DNA from: Paramacrobiotus metropolitanus
Lineage: Eukaryota; Tardigrada; Eutardigrada; Parachela; Macrobiotidae
Reading direction: 5' to 3'
Assembly (NCBI RefSeq): GCF_019649055.1
Contig: NW_026570247.1
Coordinates: forward strand, 930,001 to 994,000
Length of the DNA stretch: 64,000 bases
Part shown: positions 17,958-43,974 of the stretch, piece after piece
How positions within the stretch are numbered: the stretch's first letter is position 1
Layout of the letters: every line of letters begins with the position of its first letter
The notes under the pieces: generated by a model
The model's input: only the letters and a program-made list of their open reading frames with translations
What the model was told of the DNA's origin: nothing
Database searches by the model: none
Made by a program: the position numbers and the translations under genes

Positions 17958-18346
17958 TGTCAGAGACCGCTCACTCGAGGCGGTAGACACCTCTCGTGGC
18001 TTTGCTCTGTCGCCCGCCCGCACATGGCTACTCCATTCGTGCCGCGCTATTACGCTGCTTACTCAGCGTATACTTTGTCTACGCTGACCAATCAGCGCAT
18101 TTCTCTGCACTCTTGGGGGTGGAGCCCTGCGCCTACGGGCGATTCCATGCTTTGCCGCATCAGCTGTTGCAGACCCGCAGCACGCGGAATCATTAATCAC
18201 GATTCTCAGCTAGCGCACTGCAGGCACTTTTTCCAGCTTTTCCCGCATTGGGTTTTCTGTTGGTTTTTGTGTGTTGTTGCTTTATTGTTATCACAATAAA
18301 GGCTATATTTGCCCCATTTCTTCCTGCTTCTGTGTCATATCTGACA
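17958..18346 (+). repeat. 3' LTR of Gypsy copy 1
   Basis: 389 bp, identical to the 5' LTR except for one base near 18,239, followed by the target duplication CTTT. AATAAA lies near 18,295. Confidence 0.95.
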
Positions 18347-18373: not shown

Positions 18374-20851
18374 GGGTTTGACGGATACTTTATCCTGAAC
18401 TGGTTATTGCGTAACGGCATTGTCCCAAAGGTCATCATGAACGGCGGCAAGATCTTGATGTTGGACGTGCCGGCACCATACAACATCCACTTCCGCGACA
18501 GTTACAACTACAATCCGCAAAGTTTGTCTAAGTGGCCGGCGACCTTTGGATTGGAGAATGCCAGCAAGGGAACCTTTCCCCACCGGTTCAATCGGCCCGA
18601 CAACTGGAACCGCGTCGTGCCCTTTCCTTCCAAGGACGAGTACGGCTACGGCAGTATGAAGATTAAGGACCGGCTGGATTTTGACCGGTGGTACGATGCG
18701 GAGTTTGCGGACAAGGGCGGGATCTTTGACTTTCGGAAGGAGTTTGTCCAGTATTGCCAGAATGACGTCACGATACTGCGTCAGTGTTGCCAGCAGTTTG
18801 CCCAGCTGTTTACGGACATCAGTGATGGACTGAATCCTTTCGTCTCGGCCGCCACCATTGCCGGAGTCTGCAGCGTTTACTGGCGGACCTTCCTGCTGAA
18901 GCCGGAGCAGATCGGCCTGATTCCCAACCACGGCTTCGGACGCAACCGCCCACAGTCCACCAAGGCCCTTTGCTGGTTACAGTGGATGGAAGCCGAAGGT
19001 CTGTGTGCAATTCAGTCAAAGGTCACCGGCTCAGAGCACAAGATTGGCTCGTACTTTGTGGATGGATTTTGTGCCCAGACCAATACAGTGTACGAATTTC
19101 ACGGCTGCTGGTTCCACGGCTGTCCTCAGTGCTTTGCCGGCAATACTATCCATCCATACCGCGGCCTAAAGATGTCGGACATTTACCGGGAAACCATGGA
19201 CCGCGACCAGTATTTTAAAGATATGGGATATAACGTAGTTGTTATTTGGGAGCATGAGTACGACCGGATGCGCGTCAGTGACCCGACTTCAACGATTATG
19301 TTCGCACCATCAATATTCAAGCCGGAATCAATCCCCGGGATGCCTTCTACGGTGGACGCACCAACGCGGTCAAGCTCCATCACAAGGTGGCCGAGGATGA
19401 GCGGATCTGTTACTACGACGTGTGCAGCGAATATCCGTTCGTGAACAAGACCAAACGGTATCCCACCGGACATCCGGTCATCATCACCAAGGATTTTGTG
19501 GGTCCGCGCAGTTACTTCGGCCTTATGTCGTGCAAGGTGCTGCCGCCAGAAGATCTGTACTTGCCCATCCTTCCGTACCGTAGCAAGGACAAGTTGACCT
19601 TTCCACTTTGTCGGACCTGTGCCGACCAGCGCATCAATGCCCCCTGCGAGCACGAGCCGGACGAGCGCGCACTGATGGGTACTTGGTGTACACCGGAATT
19701 CGTGGCAGTGTTGGACCGTGGTTACGTCATCGCGGAAATATACGAAGTATGGCACTTTGACCAGCACGAAGACCGCCTCTTTGAGGGATACATCAACAAA
19801 TTCTTAAAGGTTAAAACCGAAGCCAGTGGGTGGCCGGCCGACGTCATGACCGAGGACCAAAAGATCCAGTACATCCAGGAGTACCAAGCCAAAGAAGGGA
19901 TCCAGTTGGACCGTGAGAAAGTGCAGGAAAATCCCGGTTTGCGCTCGTTGGCCAAGCTGATGCTGAACAGGTAATATAGCTACAGGACCCCGATTTCACG
20001 AGCAACATTTATGTCTTTTTGTAGCTTTTGGGGCCGTTTGGGTATGCAGAACAACAAGTTAACCACTGAATACGTCAGTGACCCGGCCCGGTTTTATGAG
20101 CTGTTGCTGTCCGGCCAGTACCATGTCCACTCGTGGGACCTTTTCGGGGAAGAAGTTCTCCAGGTCATGTATACCAAGGAGGAAGGCTTCATTGAAGATA
20201 ATCCTAGCACGAAGGTGGTGCTTGCTGCGTAAGTACTAGTAACATCGCAAGTTTCTGGCCATGACCTTTCTTGTTTTTGACCGTGACCTTTCCTCGTTTT
20301 TGACTGACCCCAGGTTTACAACTTGTTGGGCTCGGCTGCATTTACTGCAATTCATGGAACAGGTCCAGGACCGGCTGCTATATTTTGACACGGGTCAGTC
20401 GATGATGTGCTCTGTTAACAGCCCGAAATTGCACTGTTATGTTGCAGACTCTATTATCTTTGTGGACCGGCCCGACCAGCCCAAGCCGGAAACGGGCAAG
20501 TTTTTGGGTGACCTAACGGACGAACTGAAGCCCGGACAGCACATTGTCGAATTCGTTAGTCTGGGCCCAAAGACGTATGCGTATAGGACGAATGATGATG
20601 TTGACATCGTTAAGCTTAAAGGTTTTACTCTTAATGGAGCGACTAGCCAAGCTATTAATTTTGAGCGCATGTTGTCCATGTTAGACACTTCGGAAGAAGT
20701 GATTGTTAATTATCCTGACACTATACAGCGCCATAAGCCCAGTTTAACTTTAGGGCAGCGCGATATGTCTAAGAAGTTTCGTATGACCTATGACAAGCGC
20801 CGAATTGTTGAGAATTGGAACACTTTACCATTTGGCTATGTACCAAAGTGA
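18374..20851 (+). pseudogene. POLB: Polinton DNA polymerase B, exons 3-6
   Basis: C-terminal two thirds of the polymerase. Exon 3 (18,374-19,970) opens GFDGYFIL, completing Exo II, and has Exo III (YCQNDV), the Polinton GCWFHGCPQC insert and motif A (YYDVCSEYP, with E where L is usual). A single-base loss near 19,275-19,285 shifts the frame. Exon 4 is 20,025-20,228; its junction with exon 3 builds motif B (K-x3-N-S-F-W-G). Exon 5 is 20,314-20,393. A 54-bp intron (20,394-20,447) has no stop and would be read through, but splicing it yields motif C as YFDTDS. Exon 6 (20,448-20,851) ends YVPK, followed by AATAAA at 20,858-20,863. The catalytic motifs are otherwise present, so one frame break separates this copy from an intact gene. 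Confidence 0.9.
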
Positions 20852-21455: not shown

Positions 21456-21533
21456 TTAGCCACCGTGTCGCTTAGCCACTGCGTCGCTTAGCCACCGTGT
21501 CGCTTAGCCACCGTGTCGCTTAGCCACTGCACC
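21456..21533. promoter_or_regulatory. Five tandem 16-bp TTAGCCAC repeats in a divergent intergenic region
   Basis: TTAGCCAC occurs at 21,456, 21,472, 21,488, 21,504 and 21,520, exactly 16 bp apart; the rest of the unit is CGTGTCGC or TGCGTCGC. It lies between the minus-strand membrane protein (start 21,365) and the BIR-like ORF (start 21,595). A TATAAG element follows at 21,551. The same motif recurs in the other divergent region at 29,140-29,262. Confidence 0.75.
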
Positions 21534-21594: not shown

Positions 21595-21926
21595 ATGAGT
21601 TTCATGGAGAGTTTTGGCTGTTCCGAGTACGCCACGTACGAAGCGCGATTGGCAACGTATAGTGACTGGTGTCATCCTTGCAGGCTCAACGCGTCGCGTT
21701 CGTTGGCAGAGGCAGGGTTCATATATCGGCCACATGCTTTGCAACGTGTTTCCACTGCAAGCGCACTCTGTCGGACGACTGGGAGGATGGGATGGATGCG
21801 TGGAAAAAGCACGTGTACCTCAATCCATTCTGCGGATACGTGAGGGCCATGCGCGGGCGGGCGTGGGTGGACCGTGTGTACGACCTGACATGGGGAGGAG
21901 CCCAGCCTTTGGATTGGTGGACGTAG
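21595..21926 (+). pseudogene. BIR (inhibitor-of-apoptosis repeat) protein, frameshifted
   Basis: The N-terminal frame reads YEARLATYSDW and LAEAGFIY, the opening of a baculoviral IAP repeat. A different frame then supplies CFHC, a WEDG segment, a histidine and C in the order CX2CX17HX6C (BIR consensus spacing CX2CX16HX6C). The switch needs a one-base loss near 21,735-21,745. The product would be a single small BIR without a RING domain. BIR proteins bind caspases or act in mitosis; in a virus-like element an anti-apoptotic role is the natural guess. The TATAAG at 21,551-21,556 and the iterated motif lie just upstream. It could be a host gene captured by the Polinton. Confidence 0.7.
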
Positions 21927-22004
21927 ACATTTAAGTGTTTTCGACCGATTGTGTGCGTTTGAAAGCGCTTTTGTACGTGCTACTGTTGTTTTTTATGCGC
22001 AAAC

Positions 22005-22694
22005 ATGTATTCAGTGCTTGATAGTGATCCACGTTTAAAGGCATGCTTTGGCTGTTGTGTATGCGGACCGACTATGTCGGGAAAAAGTGAATTTGTGTTT
22101 AATTTAATTAAAAACCGAGACCAGATGATAGACCGACCGCCTGATCGCATTGTGTATTGTTATGGTGAATATCAGAAAGGATTTGATCTGCTACTAGAGG
22201 CAGAGCCGAAAGTGGAATTTGTTAAGGGCATAGAAGAAGTACTAACCAATGATGATTTCTTTAATACTAATCAACACACGCTGCTTATTATTGACGACTT
22301 GTCACACGTGATCAACAAGGATATGCGATGTACGAAGCTATTTACGCAAGGGATACATCATAAAAACGTATCCGTGATTTTAATCCTTCAAAATCTCTAT
22401 AAACAGGGAAAAGCGATGAGAGACATTATGCTAAATTGTCAGTATCTAGTACTGTTTAAGAACGTGCGTGACGTAAATCAGATTAGTACACTAGCTCGGC
22501 AGATGGGTCTACCGCACCTGGTGGACGCTTACCGAAAGGTCACTTCGGAGGCGTACCAGCCCATCATTCTGGACTTGAGAAGTAACTGCCCCGACTATTT
22601 AAGGGTGCGGTCTCATGTGATGCCGGATCAGTATATGCGGATTTATTTAAGTAAGAGCAATAGTACTCTGCCTAAGCCATGTCGGAAAGAGTGA
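22005..22694 (+). CDS. ATP: Polinton packaging ATPase (FtsK/HerA-like)
   Basis: Intact 229-aa ORF. The Walker A motif is GPTMSGKS (residues 21-28) and Walker B is LLIIDDL, with a sensor-type glutamine region ILILQNLY downstream. This is the A32-like/FtsK-HerA genome-packaging ATPase that pumps DNA into capsids in Polintons and related viruses. The length fits the family. The next gene starts inside its last codons (22,679), pointing to a compact polycistronic or overlapping arrangement. Confidence 0.92.
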   Translation: MYSVLDSDPRLKACFGCCVCGPTMSGKSEFVFNLIKNRDQMIDRPPDRIVYCYGEYQKGFDLLLEAEPKVEFVKGIEEVLTNDDFFNTNQHTLLIIDDLSHVINKDMRCTKLFTQGIHHKNVSVILILQNLYKQGKAMRDIMLNCQYLVLFKNVRDVNQISTLARQMGLPHLVDAYRKVTSEAYQPIILDLRSNCPDYLRVRSHVMPDQYMRIYLSKSNSTLPKPCRKE

Positions 22695-23425: not shown

Positions 23426-23499
23426 CATGTCCTCTTTTCTGCCGTCAGTTCTACGCCTTTGCCGAGTTTTCCGGATAAATTGTGTCTCAACGTGTTGCA

Positions 23500-24554
23500 A
23501 TGAATCAACTCCTGAAGAAATATCTGGACGCAAAAAATCCCGGAAGCTTTGGCGGCGTAGAAAGGTTTTATCAAGCGACAAAGCAACACAAACTGAACCG
23601 TGGGAAGGCCAAGGAGCTGTTGGAGGAACTGGATGAGTACACGGTAACAAAGGACCGTTCGAAACGTTTTAAACGCAATCAAATTGTGGTCACGGACCTT
23701 CAAATGCAGTATCAAATTGACTTGGCTGATTTTTCTAAATATTACAAAGAGAATGATGGTATAAAATATCTGTTGTTTGCCATAGACTGCTTTTCTAAAA
23801 ATTATGTGTGGTTCAAATGAAAAGCAAAAATGCTATGGAAACAAGAAATGCTTTGCAAAAAGTGTTTGATGACTTGGGTGAACCGATGCGTGTACAGACT
23901 GATAAAGGGCGCGAATTTGTGAATGATATTGTTCAGTCATTTCTGAAATCCAAAAAAGTGGAATTTTTTACATCCGAGAATGAAGATATAAAATGTGCCA
24001 TGGTGGAGAGAGTAATACGCACTATAAAATCACGCATGGTCCGGCTATTCAGACACCGAGTGTCCACACGCTACACCGATAAGCTCAATGACCTGGTGCA
24101 TTCGTACAACCGTTCTGTCCACCGCGCTCACGGTATGCGGCCTGTTGATGTCACCGAGGAAAATTCACTGGAAGTATTTAACAAGCTGTACAAAGACACC
24201 ATCGCTGAAGAACCCAAGTTTAAAGTTGGCGATACGGTTCGTCTGGCTGTCAACAAGGGAAAATTAGACAAAGGATATAATTATAATTTCAAAGAAGAAA
24301 TATTCACTATTGCCAAAGTCGTACGGCATAAGATCCCTGTGTATCGTCTGAAAGATGAGCACGGCGGAATTATTAAAGGGCAATTTTACGGGAAAGAATT
24401 ATCACGCGTGCGGAATGTGGAGAATAAAGAGCATACAATTGATTTTGTAATTAAGCGGCGAAAAGGTAAAGCACTAGTGCGGTGGTTGGGATACGGGCCA
24501 GAACACGACTCGTGGATCAGTGAAAAATGTTTGAAGGATCGCCATTCTACCTAA
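23500..24554 (+). pseudogene. INT: Polinton integrase (DDE) with chromodomain, frameshifted
   Basis: Retroviral-type integrase that inserts the element. The ATG at 23,500 is preferred over an upstream GTG. The N-terminal region (PGSFGGVERF) precedes the core, with the first D in QIDLADF, the second in VQTDKGREF and the E in MVERVIRT. A C-terminal chromodomain (about 24,430-24,535) shows KALVRWLGYGPEHDSWI, which in other families reads histone marks. One base is missing near 23,808-23,815, just after AIDCFSKNYVW, so the protein is split between the first and second catalytic residues. The 3' end overlaps the minor-capsid start at 24,527. Confidence 0.92.
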
Positions 24555-25522
24555 CGCTGCCCAGCGATGTCAACAGTTTCACCGAGAATACTGCATCGGA
24601 CTGGACAACACGCCTTAAGCATCCCATATCACTCAAAGGGCGCTGGGAAATGGCTTTGGTGGAATTTCAGTGCAATAATTCTTTATATACTCTGAGTCAT
24701 GACCAGCATATTATTTTGGATACTGTATATGGCCTGGAGTATACTAGAGTCTGGGATAAAGAAAAAGAGGCCAATACGGATCGGTTAGTAGAAATACTAG
24801 GGCGGAGTTCGTATACTGAGGACATTGTAGTGCCCGCTGGTAATTATAAAAATGTGGCGGCAATACTGGAGGTGATCAATAAGAACGCACCAGTGATGAG
24901 CATGAAGAGCCCTTATTTCCGCGTCAACGGAAGCCTTCTCAAGAACTTGAGCATTTTGCCAGAAAATAAGTATGTGCAAATGCAACTCGATAGCCATAAT
25001 AATCAACGGGTCAAAATTACTGTTGGAACACCGCGAACAACCGTGTATTTTCCCCCGGAATCCATGGCATTGCAGAAAATACTGGGATTTCGAAAATCAC
25101 ACCTAACAACAGACTTTTGGGATCTCACCCCACAAACGGCAGATTTTTTGGCTGTTGATGGCGTTGTCGAATCGTTTATAGAAAAATGCAAGGATGAAAA
25201 TTATTCCGAAACACGGGAATTTATTGCTGATTAAGCGGCTAATGCCCATTTGCAAAATCAGAATTTATTTGTTTATTGTGATGTGGCTGACTACAGTTTA
25301 ATTGGCGATACTGCAGCGCAGTTTTTGCGTAATGTACCTATTAGAGGCGGTACGGATCCTCTCGTGGAAGCAAGGTTCGACAAGGCCCATTACGTCCCTG
25401 TTATTGCTCAGCATTTTGAGACAGTGCACTTGACATTGGCTGATGACCTGGGAGAAAACGCCAAGTTTGAGAACGGCAAATCGTTGGTGAAATTGCATTT
25501 CCGACCGCAGAAGCTGTTTTAA
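24527..25522 (+). pseudogene. Polinton minor capsid (penton-like) protein, premature stop
   Basis: Opens FYLTLPSDVNSF followed by PISLKGRWEMALVEFQ, the conserved start of the single-jelly-roll penton protein of Polintons. The same reading frame continues past a TAA at 25,232-25,234 into a segment with LFVYCDVADYSLIGD and VKLHFRPQKLF, the conserved C-terminal part. So a nonsense codon, not a gene boundary, separates the two. It starts 28 bp before the integrase stop and ends 1 bp before the next ATG. Role: vertices of the icosahedral capsid (family knowledge). Confidence 0.85.
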
Positions 25523-25523
25523 A

Positions 25524-25916
25524 ATGCCTTTAGTACCGTATGTTCCTGATCCGCGGCGGTATGAAGATGTTTTCGTGGCGCAGACTGGCGGCAGCCCTCT
25601 TCTGCGCTATCGTGGTACATTGCAGAATGGTTCTGGTTTTGCGCAAGTATTTAAGAATATTATTGCTAAGATTTCTTCATTTGCTAAACCCATTATACGA
25701 ACAGCGGCGGCTAAGGCAGCACTCGAAGCAGCAACACCGCACTTGCAAGAAGCAGCCATCGGAGCTATTAAAGACGTCGCTGCACAAGCTAGCGAAGCTA
25801 TTAGTAGACGGATGCAGCAAGGCGAAGGTGTGCGAAAAAAGCGTACTCGAAAAACCCGTAGAACAACGAAGCGTGCCCGTAGAATTCCCCCGACAAATAT
25901 TCCTGATTTTCTGTAA
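25524..25916 (+). CDS. Small basic minor capsid protein (pVI-like candidate)
   Basis: Intact 130-aa ORF between penton-like and major capsid genes. It contains GGSPLLRYRGTLQNGSGF, an amphipathic alanine-rich helix (about residues 45-95) and a strongly basic C-terminus (RKKRTRKTRRTTKRARR). Position and composition match the small protein preceding the capsid gene in Polintons, which has been compared with membrane-lytic adenovirus pVI. The function is inferred from position. Confidence 0.6.
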   Translation: MPLVPYVPDPRRYEDVFVAQTGGSPLLRYRGTLQNGSGFAQVFKNIIAKISSFAKPIIRTAAAKAALEAATPHLQEAAIGAIKDVAAQASEAISRRMQQGEGVRKKRTRKTRRTTKRARRIPPTNIPDFL

Positions 25917-25918
25917 TC

Positions 25919-27260
25919 ATGGCGATGATGATGATGCCCAATTCGGAGCCAGCAATGCAGTTGGAAAATCAGCTCTTTGCTCTGCCCGCAACATTGACCG
26001 ACCGATGGCGCACTGAACACGAGAAACTTAATCCTACAACGATATTTACCGAGGATGGGACGGCTGGCGATATTAACTTCTACATTCCTCCAAGTACGGC
26101 TGGACTGTTGAGTTTAGGTGACATGGTACTGGAGTTGGAAGTGGCAATAAAGGTCAAGAAAAATAACCAGAATAATTTTGAAATAATCACTGCTGCTGAA
26201 GGGGTGGCTCCAGTGAACAATTTTCTGCATTCAATATTCCAATCGGTTCATGTAACGGTGGCTAATCGCCTCATCTCGGATGCGGCAACATTTTATCCGT
26301 ATCGCGCTTATTTTGAATCATTGTTATTTCATTCTCCGGAAGCGCAATTTTCGCAATTAAGCTCAGCGGGCTATGCGCTGGATTTGCCGGGAAAAATGAA
26401 CAATCAGACCGACAACACTGGTGAAGTCTGGCGGCATGACCTTTTTGGGAAAGGAGAATATGTACAATTATCCGGAAAAATATTTGCCGATTTATTTGAC
26501 CAAAGCAAACCGCTCTGTACGGGCATTCCTGTCCAAACACGATTAGTTATGAACCGGCCAGAATTTTGCCTACGTGTTTGGGATGCCGATAAAGATACCA
26601 AAACATACAAACCATTCATTCGGAATGCTCGGTTATCAGTACGCCGTTATATTCCGGCTCCGGACTTTATGACCGCTGTAGCCGGCCAGTTACTGAATCG
26701 CACGGTTAAATACCACATTGAACGGATTGTCATGCGGGTGGCCGACATTCCGAAGAACACCCAAAGTACTGTAGTGACCAATCTGCAGATTGGTCAAATT
26801 CCTAAGGTGGTATTCATTGGTTTCCTGGACAGCGAAGATTTTCACGGCAATTACCAGAAAAATCCATTTAATTCACCATTTCGACGTACGTCAGATAAGT
26901 GTGGAAGTGGATGGACAAAGTTATCCGACCAAACCATACAATGCTGATTTTGCGAAAAATCAGTCATTGGAATGTTACGATGGGTTGCTGGATGCCCTGG
27001 GCGCAAAAAATCATCACACCGGATGCTGGTCGGTCAATCGTAATGGCTACAACGAAGGATACGCTATTTTTGGTTTTGATTTGACACCTGGTCATACGGG
27101 TCGTGGACCGTTGACTTTAATCAAACAGGGAAATTTAAGTGTATCGGTGACCTTTGCAAAGTCACATGCTAAATCGCTGATGATGGTGTGCATGATGGTA
27201 TTTGATAGCATCATTGAGTTTAACCAGCATCGTCAACTGATTGCGGACTTCTCAACATGA
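25919..27260 (+). pseudogene. MCP: Polinton major capsid protein (double jelly-roll), frameshifted
   Basis: The N-terminal frame (25,919 on) has INFYIPPS, VNNFLHSIFQSVHV and YPYRAYFESLLFHS, typical of the double-jelly-roll capsid protein of Polintons. The C-terminal part, in another frame from about 26,885 to 27,260, has VDGQSYPTKPYNADF, YAIFGFDLTPGHTG and the closing VFDSIIEFNQHRQ. A one-base gain or two-base loss near 26,875-26,890 separates them. The combined length of about 445 residues fits the family. The stop overlaps the protease ATG (ATGA at 27,257-27,260). Confidence 0.88.
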
Positions 27261-27772
27261 ACTCGGAACAGTTATCGGCGGCCATGCGGGCTAACTCTAT
27301 TACTACCTCGACATTCCGTGGTGTGTTCGCTGCCGATGAAGTACCAATGGATCTACAGCCCTATCTTGCATCATGTATCGTCAATACGGACCCAGCAAAG
27401 CAGCCGGGAGAACATTGGGTGGCCATATACCAGGACCAAGCCAGTGTCATTGAATTTTTCGACTCGAATGGGAAATTACCGGCGTACTACAGCAACGCAC
27501 TCAGGCAAAGATTTTCTGGTAGTGTTAGACTAGTGACCCAAGGCCAAGTGTTGCAGTCTGAATTTTCTACTGTGTGTGGACAGTACTGTATGTTTTTTAT
27601 TTTACAGAGGTGCAGTGGTCAGCCATTTGGCTCAATTTTTAAAATGTTTACTGATAATAAGGCGAGCAATGACAAGATGGTTTGCCGAACTGTTAATCAT
27701 CATTTCCAGCTTAATACAGAAATTTGCAATAGCAAATTTCTAGAAAAACAGATTGTTCGTGCATTAACATGA
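27257..27772 (+). CDS. PRO: Polinton maturation protease (adenain-like, C5)
   Basis: Intact 171-aa cysteine protease. Catalytic residues are visible with adenain spacing: H53 in EHWVAIY, D69 in FFDSNG, oxyanion Q100 and nucleophile C107 in the CGQYC segment. It cleaves capsid precursors in related viruses. It overlaps the capsid stop by 4 bp. A polyadenylation signal AATAAA follows the stop directly (27,773-27,780), closing the plus-strand capsid block before the convergent minus-strand gene. Confidence 0.9.
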   Translation: MNSEQLSAAMRANSITTSTFRGVFAADEVPMDLQPYLASCIVNTDPAKQPGEHWVAIYQDQASVIEFFDSNGKLPAYYSNALRQRFSGSVRLVTQGQVLQSEFSTVCGQYCMFFILQRCSGQPFGSIFKMFTDNKASNDKMVCRTVNHHFQLNTEICNSKFLEKQIVRALT

Positions 27773-27810: not shown

Positions 27811-28971
27811 TTACATCATCATTTTATCCAACTGGGCACGCACTTCCTTACGGAACTGTGCCAAGCAGCCATCGACATCTAAATCAATACACTGACCCAC
27901 ATCAAGCTGATTAAGCAACAACAAAACACCATGAATCCGCTTCTTTTCCAAAACGTCCTTCTCGGCAGTGTTCCATTCTTCATCCGTAGCGATTCCACGC
28001 ATCGGCGTACGGCCAGTCGCGTTCTCACGGTGCTCACGAATATTGCGGAACATAATTTCAGCCAATTCCTAACAAATAAATGGGACAATTGTAAAAATCT
28101 GACGGTTCAAAAAATAACAAAGTGCAAAAATTGACAGCTCAAAAATTACATGTTGTAAAAAACACGCAACGCAAAAATTACACATTGCTAAAAACCGACA
28201 GTCAAAAAATGACGTTGTAAATTGTAGCAAGTAAAATTAAAATAATTGTACGTATTCAACTAACCTGTTTTAACGAAACGGAAGCCAGCCCAGGCTTGGG
28301 ATCCGCGGCGACATCGTGAGCTTCGTTGGTGTCCCGGATCTCCTTCAGCAGCGTGAAGTCCACCACCAGTTCCTTGAGTCCTTCGTAGGCCTTCCGACCG
28401 AAAGAAATACCGACCTTGGTTGGATACAAATCTTTATTAGGTGTCAGGTTAAAGCGGCGTACAGTGGCCAGGTCCATGTTGTTGTAGCGGCTCCACTGGA
28501 AGTACAAGTTGTCGTCCAGGCAGTAGTGTGGTGATAGTTTTCCGTTATCGAACAACGGCGGGCACGATGAGACCAGGTCGGCTTTACCAGTCAGCATTAA
28601 TCCACAGAGGCGCAAAAAGTTGTTTATGGTCATGGCGATGTACTTGTTGGCATCCACAGGCTTAAAGGTTCCGTCCGGCTGCTCTTTGAATTCGGCTAGG
28701 ACCACTTCGTCCCTCCCTCCAACCAGCGAACCAGGGCAAACTTGTCGAACCCGATTTTGTAGACGGGCAGTCCCTGTTCAGTAAAGGCGTAGCGGGCATG
28801 CTTGCCGGTAAGAACGGAGGCGCTGTTGCTGGTGCTGGCGATGTCGGATTTCTTTTGGTACTTGATAGGTTCCAGTTGCGTCCGGTCCTTGGAGATCTTC
28901 ATGGTGATCTTGCGCTTAGGATTCTTTCGGGCCGGGGTCGAGGTCGACGGGATATCAGCAAGAAATTCCAT
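27811..28971 (-). pseudogene. Protein with two PC4/Sub1-like ssDNA-binding modules (spliced, frameshifted)
   Basis: Minus-strand gene with ATG at 28,971. Exon 1 runs to 28,265, the intron is 28,069-28,264 (CAG|GTTAGT...TTAG, phase 0) and exon 2 is 28,068-27,811. Two segments show the PC4 pattern of strands followed by a PT/GISL-like turn and helix: FALVRWLEG to NNFLRLCGLM, and LYFQWSRYNN to LYPTKVGISF and AYEGLKEL; the second is the clearer. The N-terminus is basic and low in complexity (PARKNPKRKITMKISKD). An extra G in the run at 28,711-28,720 splits module one. PC4 proteins bind ssDNA and act in transcription or replication. A TATAAAA on the minus strand (29,080-29,086) precedes the start. 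The family assignment is by eye. Confidence 0.55.
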
Positions 28972-29120: not shown

Positions 29121-29263
29121 TAGGCTAGCACTGTGTAAGTTAGCCACTGCAGTGCGTACGTTAGCCACTGCAGTGTGTACGTTAGCCACTGCGTCGGTTA
29201 GCTACACCATTGCGTATGTTAGCCACTGCGTCGGCTAGCTTCACCATTGTGTATTTTAGCCAC
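29121..29263. promoter_or_regulatory. Iterated TTAGCCAC motif in the second divergent intergenic region
   Basis: TTAGCCAC or close variants start at 29,140, 29,161, 29,182, 29,198, 29,219, 29,235 and 29,256, spaced 21, 21, 16, 21, 16 and 21 bp, about two and one and a half helical turns. The block lies between the minus-strand PC4-like gene (start 28,971) and the plus-strand ORF at 29,360. It has the same core as the 16-bp array at 21,456-21,533. Confidence 0.75.
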
Positions 29264-29359: not shown

Positions 29360-29989
29360 ATGGCTGTTCATTGCGTTGTAGATGCTAAATTTGTCGAAAT
29401 TCAAAATGTTAAAGTGTTTAAGCATTTTGCTATTATTTGCCCTGAGAAAGGCAAAAGTATGTTTGCGACAGTTTTTCATCCATCTAAGAAATACATTGTT
29501 GAAGAATATGGATTACGTAATGTGAACAAGGGTGTTATATTTGGCATGCAATTGTCAGAAAATATCCGCAGCCTGCGTAATACGATCGATACCTGGTACT
29601 CTGTTATGTTTGACGATTTCGGTGACGAACACGATTGTGGTCTTCCTCATTGTAAGGGCGAGCGTCAGTACGATGTGCAGTTTTATGCAAAGGGTGCAGA
29701 CAAGTGTGCCGTCCTAGCCAGCATTCTAAAGCCAGCGACCGTTCTCAACCTGGACGATTTGAAGTGTCCACCGTTTTGCCAGCTGTCCAGTGAACGTCCG
29801 GACAAGTGGAGTAAGCCTGTTGCCTACGCCAGATGGTTGGAGGGGTACCTGAACCAGAAGACCTGCACGACTTGCATGAGAGAGCGACCGGATACCAAGA
29901 AAGAGCTGAACCAAGATGAATGCGAATGCGGAACCGTCCACTGGATCGGTAAGAGTATTTGTACCGTAAAAATCCTTACGAATCGTTAG
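29360..29989 (+). CDS. Cysteine-rich protein with a C-terminal zinc-ribbon-like motif
   Basis: A 209-aa ORF with a good ATG context, downstream of the iterated motif. The middle has a CGLPHC pair. The C-terminal part has CTTC, 15 residues, then CECGTVHW, which recalls the zinc ribbon of TFIIB-type transcription factors, although here the second knuckle is CxC. Splicing from GTAAAA at 29,966 to the acceptor AG at 30,046-30,047 would join it in phase 0 to the TBP-like ORF, making a zinc-ribbon/TBP fusion. A stronger donor-like GTAAGAG at 29,949 does not give the right phase. I do not recognise the N-terminal part. Confidence 0.5.
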   Translation: MAVHCVVDAKFVEIQNVKVFKHFAIICPEKGKSMFATVFHPSKKYIVEEYGLRNVNKGVIFGMQLSENIRSLRNTIDTWYSVMFDDFGDEHDCGLPHCKGERQYDVQFYAKGADKCAVLASILKPATVLNLDDLKCPPFCQLSSERPDKWSKPVAYARWLEGYLNQKTCTTCMRERPDTKKELNQDECECGTVHWIGKSICTVKILTNR

Positions 29990-30047
29990 TCAATTGTACC
30001 AGTTGATTTTTGCATATACGTAGTAGCAATGGTACTCGTATTAACAG

Positions 30048-30554
30048 ACTGTCAAGGTGACCAATGTTGTGGCGACTGCGGAGCTAAACTGCATCTTGGA
30101 CCTCGCTCAGTTGGAGAAGACACTGTCGATGGCCCAGTACCTACCGCATAGATTTTCCGGTTTACTCCTCCGGACACTGCATCCCATTAAAGGTCACTGT
30201 CAACTATATGCTAATGGCCGGATTACAGTCAACGGCGGCACATCTAGACGGGAGTCCTGCGCTCTGTTGCAGTATTTTACTAGTGTATTACGTCAGTATG
30301 GTTATCGCTGTATGGTTACAAATTATCGTATTGTTAATGTAATTGGTTCCTTTAACTTTGGTCAGAAGTTAAATCTGGAAAGTATTAGTAATCGCCTGCA
30401 ATTATCCTATACTCCTGAATTATTTACTGGTTTGCCTATTCGTTTATCCGCATGTACTGCTGTTCTTTTTCATTCGGGGAAATGTAATTTTCTGGGCGCA
30501 AAGTCTGTGGAGTGTTTGAATGCTGCGGTAACGGAATTAAAATCAAAGTTATGA
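30048..30554 (+). CDS. TATA-binding-protein (TBP)-like protein
   Basis: About 168 residues with both halves of the TBP saddle. Repeat 1 has NVVATAEL, LDLAQLEKTL, RFSGLLLRTL and GRITVNGG; repeat 2 has YRIVNVIGSFNFG, YTPELFTGLPIRL, VLFHSGKCNFLGAKS and a closing helix. Phenylalanines that kink DNA in TBP correspond to F in RFSG, ELFTG and VLFHSG; one position is Y. TBP nucleates transcription pre-initiation complexes at TATA boxes. A stop codon lies in frame just upstream (30,042-30,044) and there is no good ATG, so the exon probably begins at the acceptor AG at 30,046-30,047. Sequence is clearly divergent from canonical TBP. It follows a Polinton regulatory region, so I place it in the element. 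Confidence 0.8.
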   Translation, partial: TVKVTNVVATAELNCILDLAQLEKTLSMAQYLPHRFSGLLLRTLHPIKGHCQLYANGRITVNGGTSRRESCALLQYFTSVLRQYGYRCMVTNYRIVNVIGSFNFGQKLNLESISNRLQLSYTPELFTGLPIRLSACTAVLFHSGKCNFLGAKSVECLNAAVTELKSKL

Positions 30555-31148
30555 CAGCCGTCGCTTCGCTCGCCCTGTGTTGGTACCAGTACGATCGTTC
30601 ACCTAGTACACTGCACTCAAAAGCAACTTACAAATCGATAAGCCAGCTCGTGCAGACTTGGTTGATAGAGATGACTCTAGTACGAAAACGAAGATAATAG
30701 TTTTCCCAACTTAGTTCCCACAGCCAACTTTGAAAAGTTTGTTCTGCAGAACTCAGACCTTTTGGACAAGCAAAATTGCCATGGTAGATTCAAATGTGAT
30801 TCTAGTGATGTGATTGGTCCAGCAGCTAACTGGAACCAGCCAATCACGATTTTTCTTTCCGAATTATCGAAATTATTTTTTCCCCGCTGGAAATTCATTT
30901 TTTTAATTGAATTATTAATTCTATTTTTTAGAAGTTGGTCGATTCTCATGGACGGTAAGCTGATTCCACTAGCAAGAAGCTCTCTTTGCTGCTCAGGCTG
31001 ATTGCGCTACGATTTTTACTTTATTGTCTTGAGAATTTTTCAATAATTTGTTGTGATCGATTTACTAACATTAATTTTGATTTATGAAGTGTGGCGCTAT
31101 AACACTGCTATGAATCAATTATCAATCATCATATGAATTAATAATCAA
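30555..31148. other. Non-coding, A/T-rich; possible right end of the Polinton
   Basis: No supported gene. An imperfect hairpin pairs GTGATTGGTCCAG with the complement at about 30,808-30,846. The right terminal inverted repeat of the Polinton may be here, but its partner is outside the window. Confidence 0.4.
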
Positions 31149-32280: not shown

Positions 32281-32900
32281 AGTTCTGTAACCCAAAGGTG
32301 CGTGTGCAGGGTCCACCCTTTTGTCTACTGTAACCGAGAAGTGCGTGTGCGGGGTCCACTTTTTCAGTTTTTGTACTAGAACTACTAGATCAACCAGACC
32401 AGCCAGAACTACCAGTTTAGCTAGATCAGCCAGAGCAGACAGATTAGCTACATAAACCAGAATTACCAAAAAACCCAAAACTACCAGATCAATCAGAACA
32501 ACCAGAACTACCGCGCGCTGTAAAGCCTTTTAGACTTTTTGACGTCATCCGATGAACCAGATGCCGAAAGACACGCTGTAAACTGTGTAACTGAAAGGTG
32601 CGTGTGCCAGATGAAACCTTTTAGGCTTTGTAACTAAAAGGTGAGTGTGCCGGATGTAACCTTTTAGGCTTTTTAACTGGAAAGTGCGTGTGCCGGTTGA
32701 AACCCTGTAAACTGTGTAACTGAAAGGTGCGTGTGCCAGATGTAACCTTTTAGGCTTTGAAACGGAAAGGTGCGTGCATCGGATGAAACCTTCTTGGCTT
32801 TTTAACTGAAAGGTGAGCGTGCCGGATGTAACCTTTTCGGCTTTGAAACTGAAAGGTGCGTGTGCCGGATGAAACCTTTTAGGCTTTTGCAGGTTAAAGG
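32281..32900. repeat. Minisatellite with about 43-bp units, and a short ACCAGAACT-rich tract
   Basis: Units of the type TGAAAGGTGCGTGTGCCGGA followed by TGAAACCTTTTAGGCTTTGTAAC recur from about 32,565 to 32,900 at roughly 43-bp spacing, with two earlier related copies near 32,290-32,360. Between them (about 32,375-32,510) is a degenerate tract of ACCAGAACT/ACCAGATCA words. Confidence 0.8.
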
Positions 32901-33061
32901 TACAATTGCGAAATCTACTTTTTTATTCTTACGCTGTTGAAGCCTTTTTGTGTACACTTGCCCCGGCAAACATCCTTCAGGTTTATCTAAATTTTAGAAA
33001 ACATTTTTACTTCGAATTATTTAGCTAAAAGACGCAGCTGACAGAAACAGACTTTGCACTG

Positions 33062-33089
33062 CAGCGCGGCGCTTAAGCGCCGCGCGCTG
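33062..33089. repeat. G/C palindrome
   Basis: CAGCGCGGCGCTT is followed directly by AAGCGCCGCGCGCTG, a near-perfect inverted repeat with a two-base surplus in one arm. Function unknown. Confidence 0.6.
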
Positions 33090-33164
33090 TGCTTGTCTAA
33101 TCTATTAAGCGGCTGATGGAGGAACGCGACCGCCTCCAAATCGTTCTCATTGGTCAAAACCAAA

Positions 33165-33560
33165 ATACTTACTAAACGAAGTGAATCAACTGAACAAACT
33201 CACAAACTATAGTGAACCTGCTGAACACACTTACTAAACAGATTGAACTGGCTGAACCCAACCAAAACCTTAGTGAACCACCTGAACCCAACCGAAAAGT
33301 TAGTGAACCCACTGAATCCACTTAAAACCTCTCTGAATTAGCCGAACCCAACCTAATCTTCAGTGAACAGACTGTAATCCAACTAAAACCTTACTGAACC
33401 CACTGATCCCCACTAAAACCTTACTGAACCAACTGAACGCAACCAACAAAATAAGTGAACCGACTGAACCCGACCAAAACTATATTTGAACCAACTGAAC
33501 CCAACCGAAAAGTTAATGAATCGAATGAACCCAACCAAAATTTGCCAAAATAAACCAGCT
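33165..33560. repeat. Minisatellite with about 33-bp units
   Basis: Degenerate units of the type TGAACCAACTGAACCCAACC plus AAAACCTTAG, about a dozen copies. No coding signal. Confidence 0.75.
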
Positions 33561-33589
33561 CACCAAGCTATTTTAAAGCAACAAGAGAG

Positions 33590-35540
33590 TGGGCGGCATA
33601 ACGTAACCACGTCAGTGCAAACGACAAAACCTTACCACAAATGAGTTTGCAGCGTAACGTTACCACCGCATAACGAACGGGCGGCATAACGTAACCGCAA
33701 AAATGTTAATGGCGCAACGTAGCCGCAAGTGCAAGAGCGGCGCAACTTATCCACAAGAGAGTAAGCGGCGTAACGTAACCACAAGAAAGCCAGCTGCGAA
33801 ATGTAACCACGAAAAATTAAGCGGCGTAACGTAATTAAATGAGAGTGGGCGACACAACTTAACCACAAGTGAGTTGGCAGCGTAAAATAAACTCAATTGA
33901 GTGGGCGGCATAATGTACCCCGTCAGATCAAGCGGCTTAACGTAACCACAGGTGCATAAGCCGCGCAACGAAACCACAAGAGGGTAGGCGGCGTAACGTA
34001 ACCTCAAGAGGGCTAGCTGTGGAATGTAACCACAAAAAAGTTAGCGGCGTAACGTAACCAACAGAGAGTGGGCGGGATAACGTAAACACGTCAGAGCAAG
34101 CGGAATAACGTAACCAACAGAGAGTGGGCGGGATAATGTAAACACGTCAGAGCAAGCGGCATAACGTAACCACAAGAAAGTAGCGGCATGACGTAGCCAC
34201 AAGAAAGTGAGCGGCATAAGGTAACCACAAAAGAGCAAGCGGCGTTACGTGAGCACAGGCAAGTAAGCGGTGTATAGTAACCACAAGAAATTGAGCGGCG
34301 CAACGTAATTACAAAAGAGATTCCAGCGCAAAGTAACCAAAAGTGAGTTATCAGCGCAAAGTAACTCCAAGAAGTTGAGCGTCGTAACGTAACCACAAGA
34401 GAGTGAGCGGCACAAAACAACCACCAGAGAGTAATCGCCGTAACGTAACCGCAGGAGAATGAGCGGCGTAACGCAACCACAGAAAGTGAGCAGCGTCACG
34501 TAACCACAAGAGAGTGCGCGGAGCAAAGAAACCACAAGGGAGTCAGCGGCGCAAAGTAACACCAAGAAATTGAGCGGCGTAACATAACCACAAGAGAGTG
34601 AGCTGCGCAAAGTAACCACAAGAGAGCAAGCGTCGTAACGTAACCACACGAGTGAGCGGCGTAATGTAACCACAAGAGAGTGAGCGGCTTTACGTAGGCA
34701 CTCGAGAGTAAGCGATGTAACGCAACCACAAGATAGTAAGCTGCGCAAGCAACCACAAGAGAGTAAGCGGCGCAAGTAACCACAAGAGAGTAAGCGGCGT
34801 AACGTGAGCACAGGCAAGTAGGTTTAGTATAGTAACCACAAGAAGTTGAGCGTCGTAACGTAACCACAAGAGTTATCAGCGCAAAAAGTAACTACAAGAA
34901 GCTAAGCGTAACGTAACCAAAAGAGAGTTAGCAGAGCAAAGTAACCACAAAAGAGTAATCGGCGTAACGTAACCGCAGAAGAGTGAGTGGCGCAATGCAA
35001 CCACAAGTTAGTGAGAGGCGTAACGTAACCACAAGAAAATGAGCAGCGTCACGTAACCACAAGAGAGTGCGTGGAGCAAAGTAACCACAAGAAAGTGTGC
35101 GAAACAAAGTAACCGCAAGGGAGTCAGCGGCGCAAAGTAACAACAAGAAACTGAGCGGCGTAACATGACCACAAGAGAGTGAGCTGCGCAAAGTAACCAC
35201 AAGAGAGTAAGCGGCGTAACGTAACCACACGAGTGAGCGGCGTAATGCAAGCACGTGAGAGTAAGCGGCGCAAAGTAACCACAAGAGAGTAAGCGGCGTA
35301 ACTTGGGAACAGGAGAGTATGAATGTGTAGTAACCACGCGAGAGTAGTCGGCGCACCGTGAGCATGCGAGTGCATTCGGTGTAACGTAACCACAGGAGAG
35401 CAAGCGTTGTGACGTAATCGTAAAATGGTGTGCGGCGTAACGATAGCAAGCGAGAATTAGCGGCGTAACGTAACCAAGCGAAACTAAAAGATATAACGCA
35501 ATCGCGCGAAAGTTAGAAGCGCACGTTACCACGCGAGAGT
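33590..35540. repeat. Minisatellite with about 28-bp units (about 1.95 kb)
   Basis: Dozens of degenerate copies of GTAAGCGGCGTAACGTAACC followed by ACAAGAGA. Long minus-strand open frames across this block are a by-product of the unit lacking stops on that strand. They are not supported as genes. Confidence 0.9.
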
Positions 35541-42034: not shown

Positions 42035-43143
42035 ATAGTAATTATTTTGTAATATAAGTTATTATTTTTCAAAAAGCATATAAAATCCAGCTAAAAGAAA
42101 ATTATTCAGTTTATAACAATTTTTTATGATATGTGTATGATGATATTAAATGCAAGAACCATACCACGCGCGGCCGCCCCATAGTTCTGAAATCTCAATA
42201 ACCAAACAATTTTTTTAAAACCTGACACTGCCAACAGGTCGACCTGGGATGTAAAACTGGTTCTTATGGTTTTTGTTTCAAATTCGTCCCGCTAGAATAT
42301 TTTCGGCACGATGCCGGAAACGATCCAACCCACTTTCAAGGGTTCCTTGAAACTTCACCGAGCTACCACTGCTGCCCAGTGAACAAAATCGCTAGGTGAG
42401 AGAGTGATATTTCCACCAGTGTCCAGTGAACAAAATAGCAAGCTGAATGAATGACAGAGATATAGTCCGTGCCCAAAAGTTGTGAATTACTTGCTTCGGC
42501 AATTATGCATTTGCTAACGAATCAAAGGGCAGCGGCCGTATATGTTCAGGGTGGCCGTGGATCATGAGAAACGCAGAGGCAAGCCGCAATTGTTTCTTTT
42601 ACAGTTATAACGCGACCGGAAATAGAACGCGGAATTCGAGGTCGGTGCCCCAGACACCACGTAAATCATTAATAGCGATTTCCAAATTTAAATGTTTGCT
42701 GCCAAAAGCCAGCTCTGGGTAAAAAAAAATCCAAGATTACCCACAAGAAACGAACCAACAAAAAACCGTCCGCTCTTGAATACTTATGCTCCGGCCAGTT
42801 CTTGCACCCCCGAATTTTTACTCCAGCAAAGCCGTTTGCCCAAATACGTACTGCAGCAAAACGACTCTCTCCAACCTTTTCGAAAAAATTTTAAGTCTGA
42901 CGGTTTGCCGGCTAGATACGTGCGCTTCACTCGCATGAAGGTGTCATACAGGACAAAGTAGTAGTTTTCAGTTTGATTGGTACACTAGTATTCCGCGTAT
43001 TCAGCATTTTAAAAGTTGTCCCAGTTTTCCTTCCTCAGTTAAGAGAAAAGCTGGGCAAAATTTCTGTAGAAAGCCGTGAAACTAATCTGGTGCAGCATGT
43101 GAATATGCGCTGATCCACTACAGCATCCAGCACGAGTGTCGCG
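42035..43143. other. Intergenic, nothing recognised
   Basis: No supported gene. An 89-residue frame at 42,692-42,961 has no domain or context support. Confidence 0.5.
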
Positions 43144-43974
43144 ATGGATAATCCAGGATCTTCTGGTTTCGAGCCTGTGGAACGGATTTCGGTCGGACAG
43201 GAATGGCCAAACACGCGAAGTTTGATGGATTTCCTTGATTCATATACTGCCAGAACGAAGCAAGTCTTTCGTAAAGGCAATACGCAGTTCCGCTCGGACG
43301 CGCCAGGGGAATATCTCCGTCTGGAACTTTTATGTGTACATGGGAAAAAAACTGGAACGCGTAAGCCTACAGAAGTTCGCCCAATTCAGAACACCTTCCG
43401 GAAAAACTGTTCGGCCCGGCTTGTTTTCTACTACAGCAAGAAAGAAAATTTCATTCATTGCGAGCAAAGCTCTATGGAGCACAATCATGAACTGTTGGAG
43501 GCAGTTTACTCCCATTATCCTTCAGTTCGACGATTGTCAGTTACGGATCGTGAGAAGGCTAAAGAAATACTGCGCATGGGAACCAACGTGAGCTCGATTG
43601 TTGCTTCTATGAAACAAAATACCGGAAAAGATGTGCGACCGAAGGACATTCACAACATTCGTACACAGGACAAGGCTAAAATCCGGGGCGAAAAATCAGA
43701 GGATGAGATCCTCCAGCAAGGCCTACAGACCGCAAAAGAAACGGACCCCGGGTTGGAAATTAAGCACTCCACAAACGCAGAAGGTGGACTCGACGTGCTT
43801 GTTCTTGTAACAAGCAAAATGAAAGACACGTTTGCTAGGCACTACATATTTATAATAACAACCCATTCCTTCTGTGCGCATGATTCGTCGTCCAATTCAG
43901 TTAAAAAGAAACAGCTGCACACTAGGCTGTTTTCAAAATTAAGTATCATGCCATTTTCTATTGCGTACCACTGA
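43144..43974 (+). CDS. FAR1/ZSWIM3-like zinc-binding N-terminal domain (MULE-related fragment)
   Basis: A 276-aa ORF. It has a DNA-binding fold of the FAR1/FLYWCH/ZSWIM3 type: SLMDFLDSYTARTKQVFRKG, LLCVHGKK, NCSARLVFYY and the histidine pair MEHNHEL, followed by the helical HYPSVRRLS segment common in these proteins. The segment LVTSKMKDTFARH resembles the start of a MULE-type transposase core. After it the frame passes into unrelated sequence and the catalytic domain is not found downstream. It is therefore either a truncated MULE transposase gene, a domesticated ZSWIM3-like gene broken here, or a first exon with an unrecognised donor. Confidence 0.55.
   Translation: MDNPGSSGFEPVERISVGQEWPNTRSLMDFLDSYTARTKQVFRKGNTQFRSDAPGEYLRLELLCVHGKKTGTRKPTEVRPIQNTFRKNCSARLVFYYSKKENFIHCEQSSMEHNHELLEAVYSHYPSVRRLSVTDREKAKEILRMGTNVSSIVASMKQNTGKDVRPKDIHNIRTQDKAKIRGEKSEDEILQQGLQTAKETDPGLEIKHSTNAEGGLDVLVLVTSKMKDTFARHYIFIITTHSFCAHDSSSNSVKKKQLHTRLFSKLSIMPFSIAYH

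What the first reader, a model, noticed from the sequence alone, without database searches (positions are those of the whole stretch)
30048..30554. A TBP-like gene carried by a Polinton
Both halves of the TBP saddle are readable, with most DNA-kinking phenylalanines. The gene sits directly beyond the capsid/protease block and behind the same iterated motif as another Polinton gene. Some large DNA viruses encode TBP-like proteins, but I do not know of one in Polintons. It would let the element steer its own transcription.
Basis: partly seen in the sequence, partly recalled or inferred. Interest (0 to 1): 0.88.

Follow-up and report, generated by a model that had tools for sequence, protein, structure and literature searches.

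The report
TATA-binding protein gene inside tardigrade Polintons
Virus-like mobile elements in a tardigrade genome carry their own version of TBP, the protein that normally starts gene transcription, and natural selection has kept it intact, which suggests that these elements help to run their own gene expression.

The parts
18374..19974 (+). family B DNA polymerase (pPolB-type) pieces of the Polinton, in two overlapping frames in this copy; LTR-type sequence lies just to the left
   Evidence: Pfam DNA_pol_B_2 E 1.4e-17 and 1.8e-19
21456..21527 (+). iterated motif array (core TTAGCCAC, five copies 16 nt apart) upstream of the BIR-like gene
21963..22694 (+). A32-like genome-packaging ATPase
   Evidence: Pfam Pox_A32 E 3.2e-5, 24.0 bits against cut-off 22.8
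23479..24554 (+). retroviral-type integrase with chromodomain, in two overlapping frames (first piece 23479-23820 assigned by eye)
   Evidence: Pfam rve E 6.1e-5 and Chromo E 4.4e-4 in 23799-24554, both below their cut-offs; frames
24524..25234 (+). penton-like (minor capsid) candidate
   Evidence: no Pfam match; 31% identical over 191 columns to an ORF of the C128 element; capsid role inferred
25907..26947 (+). major-capsid-like candidate
   Evidence: no Pfam or PDB match; 48% identical over 314 columns to an ORF of the C128 element; capsid role inferred
27224..27772 (+). adenovirus-type maturation protease
   Evidence: Pfam Peptidase_C5 E 2e-5, 24.8 bits against cut-off 21.3
28256..28971 (-). 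PC4-like gene, split over two frames in this copy (ORF 28256-28777 plus an upstream piece), divergent from the TBP gene
   Evidence: Pfam PC4 E 3.4e-5, 23.7 bits, just under cut-off 25; frames; 9 of 9 other non-host-like PC4 matches lie beside a TBP match
29140..29263 (+). iterated motif array (core TTAGCCAC, five copies) between the divergent PC4-like gene and the partner/TBP genes
29360..29989 (+). partner ORF, relative of proteins with a predicted RNase-H-like (DEDD exonuclease) fold; overlaps the TBP gene in another frame
29916..29948 (+). TBP gene, predicted exon 1 (start codon, 11 residues)
   Evidence: start and frame kept in 9 of 10 group-A loci; coordinates
29949..30047 (+). predicted TBP intron, 99 nt, GTAAG...AACAG
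   Evidence: the NCBI model of the C131 copy (P0030) appears to use the homologous junction
30048..30554 (+). TBP gene, exon 2: both TBP repeats and the stop codon (the finding)
30834..30993 (+). right terminal inverted repeat, ends ...TTTGCTGCT
   Evidence: 160 bp at 96.9% identity to the left repeat at G000:C27:920434-920593, outside the window
30994..30999 (.). 6-bp target-site duplication CAGGCT (identical at the left end)

Best explanation
This is a genuine TBP-family gene belonging to Polintons of the tardigrade Paramacrobiotus metropolitanus. Shown: the gene lies inside a Polinton bounded by terminal repeats and a 6-bp duplication; TBP genes of several diverged lineages lie near pPolB or other Polinton genes at lineage-specific positions; intact copies are under purifying selection; the predicted fold is the TBP saddle. 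Predicted from sequence: in this lineage it is made from a two-exon gene whose first exon lies in another frame inside a partner gene of RNase-H-type fold. Inferred: the early region is transcribed by host machinery (TATA boxes precede the partner gene in some lineages). The element's TBP, perhaps with its PC4-like protein, then binds a differently read core promoter on element DNA, keeps contact with host TFIIB, and recruits host RNA polymerase II to element genes, probably the late/virion set. This would resemble the beta- and gamma-herpesvirus TBP-like factors. Confidence is about 0.98 for identity and location and about 0.45 for the mechanism.
For: Identity. Location: termini, repeat pair and target duplications. 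Linkage: 44 of 79 scored pPolB loci have a TBP-family match within 15 kb, 2.2 expected if TBP loci were spread evenly, and none is added between 15 and 25 kb. Spacings repeat: 0.7-1.4 kb convergent, 2.3-3.2 kb co-oriented, 7-8 kb convergent, 9-11 kb co-oriented, and one at 12.2 kb. A further lineage (C128) has integrase, protease and capsid-like ORFs beside TBP. Selection: 59 of 59 pairs with dS 0.1-1.5 have dN/dS below 0.5, median 0.14; 131 of the 150 listed matches have no stop in the matched stretch (my count; frameshifts not counted). Partner: 9 of 9 PC4 matches other than the host-like C41 lie 1.07-1.54 kb from a TBP match. Altered readout: against yeast TBP (alignment; contact positions recalled) V122->T, T124->N, V213->N, T215->L while N69, N159 and three kinking Phe stay. 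T and N at 122/124 are the same in 28 of 28 close relatives; Asn at 213 in all but one of the rows that reach it, Leu at 215 in all but two. Of the recalled TFIIB contacts E186/E188/L189, E188 is kept here and nearly everywhere, L189 is mostly Leu or Ile, and E186 varies. TATAAA-type boxes lie before the partner gene in 5 of 20 loci viewed (L022, L024, L032, L034, L036; by eye).
Against: No expression, DNA-binding or promoter data. The window copy belongs to a damaged element (pPolB, integrase, PC4-like and BIR-like genes are each spread over two frames; LTR-type sequence is nested in it), so this copy may be inert. 35 of 79 pPolB loci showed no TBP match within 25 kb, though only the best candidates were scored, so TBP is not shown to be essential to Polintons here. 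In the most diverged lineages the Thr at 122 is Ile and in one (L070) the Asn at 124 is Ile, so the changed contacts are not uniform. PC4 folds can also serve as single-stranded-DNA-binding replication proteins (recalled), which would weaken the transcription reading. The iterated motif is missing from three group-A copies, 15 of 20 loci showed no TATAAA-type box by eye, and I found no shared promoter element.
Confidence: 0.6

Rival explanations
1. Host interference: the element's TBP is a decoy that occupies host promoters or sequesters host TFIIB/TFIIA, lowering host transcription or silencing sister elements, rather than driving element genes.
For: Core-sized TBP without a long N-terminal tail; altered DNA-contact residues; very many copies in one genome.
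Against: A pure decoy would need little constraint on both DNA face and fold across lineages this diverged, yet dN/dS is low and the gene is kept in several architectures. Decoy function is not excluded.
Confidence: 0.15
2. Non-transcriptional use: a TBP-fold DNA-bending protein acting at the ends of the element in replication, integration or packaging, together with a PC4-like single-strand binder and an exonuclease-fold protein.
For: The gene sits 439 bp from the right terminus in this lineage; one element (C218) carries TBP exon 2 near both ends; neighbours are a PC4-like protein and a relative of RNase-H-fold proteins.
Against: In other lineages TBP is about 1 kb from pPolB or divergent from the virion block; its distance from the termini there was not measured. 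The full two-lobe TBP is kept.
Confidence: 0.15
3. Decaying passenger: the gene is ancestral cargo no longer used by these elements.
For: 19 of 150 listed matches carry stops (my count); this element is damaged.
Against: Purifying selection between close copies, dN/dS 0.04-0.24 at dS 0.11-0.36, although I left out copies with a broken domain frame.
Confidence: 0.06
4. Host TBP retrocopy or host gene that happens to lie next to a Polinton.
For: The closest solved relatives are cellular TBPs at about 26-30% identity, nearer than the top viral structure matches.
Against: It lies between the termini inside a 6-bp duplication; the family is linked to pPolB in 44 of 79 loci; a branch with support 99/92 separates the element TBPs from four cellular TBPs including the host's.
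Confidence: 0.01

Closest known systems
TBP-like proteins of beta- and gamma-herpesviruses (EBV BcRF1, MHV-68 ORF24 and analogues)
   Same: A DNA virus encodes a TBP-fold protein; in herpesviruses it binds TATT boxes of late promoters (PMC4893493, passages read).
   Different: Those have about 10% overall identity to TBP by that review and act in a multi-protein complex; the Polinton protein is a core-sized TBP at about 26-30% identity to cellular TBPs. No herpesvirus partners were looked for.
TBPs of giant viruses, large algal viruses and mirusviruses
   Same: Virus-encoded TBP: in Mimiviridae and relatives (PMC3620924, passage) and Megavirus chilensis (PMC11464507, passage); in 59% of mirusvirus genomes (PMC10132985, passages); sporadic in Cymbomonas heliorhodopsin elements of putative mirusvirus origin (PMC10675990, passages). 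Closest in mode: Chrysochromulina parva virus BQ1 has TBP and two TFIIBs that its authors think act on the host RNA polymerase (PMC12085832, passage).
   Different: Larger viruses, several with RNA polymerase subunits. Here the carrier is about 22 kb and no RNA polymerase appeared among the window ORFs scanned. Top viral structure match 17% identity, second 21%.
Maverick/Polinton elements and adintoviruses of animals
   Same: Family B polymerase, rve integrase, A32-type ATPase, C5 protease, terminal inverted repeats, 6-bp duplication.
   Different: TBP, PC4-like and partner genes; I found no report of TBP in such elements (searches; passages 82-84, 117, 119-121, 125-127).
Cellular TBP, including the host's own (G000:C4:406165-406662)
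   Same: Same domain, two repeats, same fold, three of four kinking Phe.
   Different: One kinking Phe is Tyr, central contacts changed, separate side of a 99/92 branch.

Membership tests
Maverick/Polinton | family B (protein-primed type) DNA polymerase | tested here: met
   DNA_pol_B_2 E 1.4e-17 and 1.8e-19, in two frames in this copy; protein priming itself not testable
Maverick/Polinton | retroviral-type rve integrase | tested here: met
   rve E 6.1e-5 with Chromo domain, below Pfam's own cut-off; rve E 3.4e-7, also below cut-off, in the C128 element
Maverick/Polinton | A32/FtsK-type packaging ATPase | tested here: met
   Pox_A32 24.0 bits, cut-off 22.8; the short C128 piece gave no Pfam match
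Maverick/Polinton | adenovirus-type C5 protease | tested here: met
   Peptidase_C5 24.8 bits, cut-off 21.3; 26.5 bits in the C128 element
Maverick/Polinton | double-jelly-roll major capsid protein | tested here: inconclusive
   ORF 25907-26947 has no Pfam, PDB or phage match; 48% identical to an ORF of the C128 element; fold not predicted
Maverick/Polinton | terminal inverted repeats | tested here: met
   160 bp, 96.9%; paired ends in six elements
Maverick/Polinton | 6-bp target-site duplication | tested here: met
   6/6 in five of six elements, 5/6 in C59
TATA-binding protein (TBP) | two TBP repeats in one chain | tested here: met
   PF00352 in two stretches, E 8.5e-32
TATA-binding protein (TBP) | saddle fold | tested here: met
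TATA-binding protein (TBP) | four DNA-kinking Phe | tested here: inconclusive
   three Phe and one Tyr (Y55, the same in 28 of 28 rows); positions recalled from yeast TBP
TATA-binding protein (TBP) | binds TATA DNA and nucleates a pre-initiation complex | not testable with these tools
   needs biochemistry; central contact residues differ
Herpesvirus-type viral TBP system | non-TATA (TATT) late promoters read by the viral TBP | not tested
   one element with letters is too few for a promoter search

The most novel reading that the evidence does not exclude
A whole clade of animal Polintons, not just one species' copies, runs a core-promoter system of its own: an element TBP with changed DNA readout plus a PC4-like partner selects element promoters for host RNA polymerase II. 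That would be, as far as I know, the smallest DNA element with its own general transcription factor, and would show that re-coding the basal promoter does not need a large virus.
Probability: 0.4. Interest if true: 0.87.

Novelty: new variant of a known kind. Interest (0 to 1): 0.76.

Why it matters
Polintons are described with replication, integration and virion genes, and are generally taken to rely on host promoter recognition (general knowledge). A maintained TBP, spread through several of their lineages in one animal, makes it testable whether a 22-kb element re-codes its own core promoters. It also bears on how larger eukaryotic DNA viruses of the same kingdom came by their own transcription factors. 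A transcriptome of this tardigrade is published (PMC11191345, passages seen), so expression and the predicted splice may be checkable in existing data.

Tried and rejected
Host gene or retrocopy: rejected by termini, duplication and linkage.

Start of the gene at 30048: rejected. No ATG there; the splice acceptor and exon 1 explain it. An alternative donor in two copies (L010, L014) would fuse TBP in frame to the partner ORF, and two copies (L025, L033) have partner sequence and TBP in one open frame of 407 and 403 aa. So fusion is possible in some copies, but overlap of two genes fits more of them.

Iterated motif as a TBP site: not supported, because it is absent from three of the group-A copies examined.

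Partner as a constant companion: only partly shown. It was found in the loci listed and beside TBP in C128; a pattern check of 27 further loci found it in 2, but most of these hold only about 0.4 kb upstream of TBP, and in C59/C218 (L011-L013) the pattern failed although the DNA of L011 and L013 aligns over the region.

Relatives in viral contigs: none confirmed for TBP or the partner; none in phages for TBP or the capsid-like ORF. The contexts of the metagenome relatives could not be read. The C5 profile is weak in this genome (27 matches), so it undercounts Polintons. The window's own pPolB was not among the 79 scored loci.

Partner as an active exonuclease: not claimed. The fold matches DEDD exonucleases and also the Maelstrom domain; no PDB match by sequence; catalytic residues were not analysed.

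Literature: listings seen; passages found by term. Papers holding both TBP and Polinton terms were opened and none reports a Polinton TBP in the passages shown. Two likely sources were not held: the one asked for by DOI and the Polinton review. So absence from print is not shown.

Full report
What was claimed.

The element. Close copies in the same genome stay alike past the gene and stop together. The end of the window copy is position 30993. The last 160 bp match the left end of the same element, outside the window at G000:C27:920434-920593, at 96.9%. The 6 bp outside both ends are CAGGCT. Five further elements (C131, C218, C26, C232, C59) have paired ends; four have perfect 6-bp duplications and C59 has 5 of 6. 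By the coordinates, four of them span 21.9-22.6 kb and C218 20.7 kb. The window copy spans 40.6 kb, presumably because of nested insertions: a reverse-transcriptase/integrase ORF lies at 7958-12175 and LTR-like direct repeats at 17958-18315. Within the window the element shows family B polymerase, A32-type ATPase, rve integrase with chromodomain, C5 protease and capsid-like ORFs. The TBP stop codon is 439 bp before the right terminus, so the gene is inside.

The host. A protein that NCBI names TATA-box-binding protein-like of Paramacrobiotus metropolitanus, on a contig of 449093 bases (P0028), matches contig C112 of this genome, whose length is 449093, exactly over its first 108 of 131 residues. 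A second NCBI protein of the species (P0030) has a contig length of 345344, that of C131. So the genome is that tardigrade's. A typical animal-like TBP, taken as the host's own, is at C4.

How common. Two searches of the genome scored 150 TBP matches each, the cap, out of 493 and 299 candidates. Merged they give 155 loci, host TBP and fragments included. Of 79 pPolB loci merged from the listed matches, 44 have a TBP-family match within 15 kb against 2.2 expected on an even spread; widening to 25 kb adds none. Spacing and orientation repeat within groups and differ between them. A lineage without a scored pPolB (C128) was read directly and has rve integrase, C5 protease, capsid-like and penton-like ORFs beside TBP; its short ATPase-like piece, assigned by eye, gave no Pfam match. 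35 of 79 pPolB loci had no TBP match within 25 kb; the searches were capped, so this does not show absence.

Selection and descent. Among 36 copies with an intact domain frame, 59 of 630 pairs have dS between 0.1 and 1.5; all 59 have dN/dS below 0.5, median 0.14, highest 0.45. Leaving out broken copies biases this towards constraint, and the pairs are not independent. In a tree of 81 sequences the 24 tardigrade element TBPs fall with 49 others, mostly unnamed database proteins, on one side of a branch with support 99/92; four cellular TBPs (host, fern, lichen fungus, Plasmodium) fall on the other side. Unnamed sequences are interleaved with tardigrade lineages, so the family is wider than these copies. 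Deep branches are long, and the rows C66 (L072) and several others are of uncertain place.

A partner of the same trade. Of 10 PC4 coactivator matches in the genome one is strong and host-like (C41); the other 9 all lie 1.07-1.54 kb from a TBP match, where about 0.4% of random places would lie within 2 kb of one. The window has a PC4-like gene too, divergent from the TBP gene, just under Pfam's cut-off and split over two frames. PC4-type proteins can also act as single-strand binders in replication (recalled), so this is suggestive, not proof of a transcription module.

How it may work. Alignment to yeast TBP, with contact positions recalled, shows that N69, N159 and three of four kinking Phe are kept, while F116 is Tyr, V122 Thr, T124 Asn, V213 Asn and T215 Leu. 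Tyr, Thr and Asn at 116, 122 and 124 are the same in 28 of 28 close relatives. In the most diverged lineages 122 is Ile, and 124 is Ile in one. Of the recalled TFIIB contacts E188 is kept, L189 is mostly Leu or Ile, and E186 varies. This fits a TBP that still bends DNA and contacts TFIIB but reads a different core sequence. TATAAA-type boxes lie before the partner gene in 5 of 20 loci viewed, fitting a scheme in which host TBP starts the early region and element TBP the later genes; 15 of 20 showed none by eye. The scheme is inference: no promoter, binding or expression evidence was obtained. Herpesviruses of the beta and gamma groups do this with a TBP-like protein on TATT late promoters (PMC4893493, passages), and Chrysochromulina parva virus BQ1 is thought by its authors to act on the host polymerase with its TBP and TFIIBs (PMC12085832, passage).

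What is known. Viral TBPs are known from mimiviruses and relatives (PMC3620924, passage; PMC11464507, passage), mirusviruses (PMC10132985, passages), mirus-like elements of a green alga (PMC10675990, passages), a haptophyte virus and herpesviruses. A structure search of viral proteins finds many giant-virus TBPs, top match 17% and second 21% identity; of the 50 rows shown none is named as a Polinton or adintovirus, though many have no name. Term searches found no paper on TBP in a Polinton, and the Polinton, adintovirus or PLV papers probed by term do not mention it in their main text; two likely sources were not held. The gene, the splice and the linkage appear new; the general idea, a DNA virus with a TBP, is not. 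Hence new variant of a known kind.

Noticed in passing
window 21595-21923 (+): BIR (inhibitor-of-apoptosis) domain pieces in two overlapping frames behind the TTAGCCAC motif array; each piece hits Pfam BIR (E 0.0024, below cut-off, and 4.6e-5, above it). Either spliced or broken; described only.
   Followed up: partly
G000:C218:19953-40682 (L012, L013, L040, L041): An element whose two outward-facing ends both carry TBP exon 2; similarity to the window covers about 980 bp at the left end and 2.5 kb at the right. Suggests spread of one end to the other.
   Followed up: partly
G000:C128:319700-327700 (L077): Two relatives of the partner gene in one element, one beside TBP and one beyond the protease.
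   Followed up: no
G000:C140 around 233257, 250344, 253127: Three TBP-family matches within 20 kb on one contig, in both orientations.
   Followed up: no
genome-wide pPolB matches: A number of pPolB frames carry a single TAG in the matched stretch (for example C131, C26, C232, C55, C60, C19). Shared decay, an intron or something else was not examined.
   Followed up: no
G000:C66:348900-350200 (L072): A very diverged TBP-domain gene without a scored pPolB nearby; perhaps a host TBP-like factor.
   Followed up: partly
window 32519-35350: Long tandem arrays of 43-nt and 28-nt units just right of the Polinton.
   Followed up: no
window 43114-43974 (+): Weak FAR1/ZSWIM3-type DNA-binding match, possibly another transposon remnant.
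   Followed up: no
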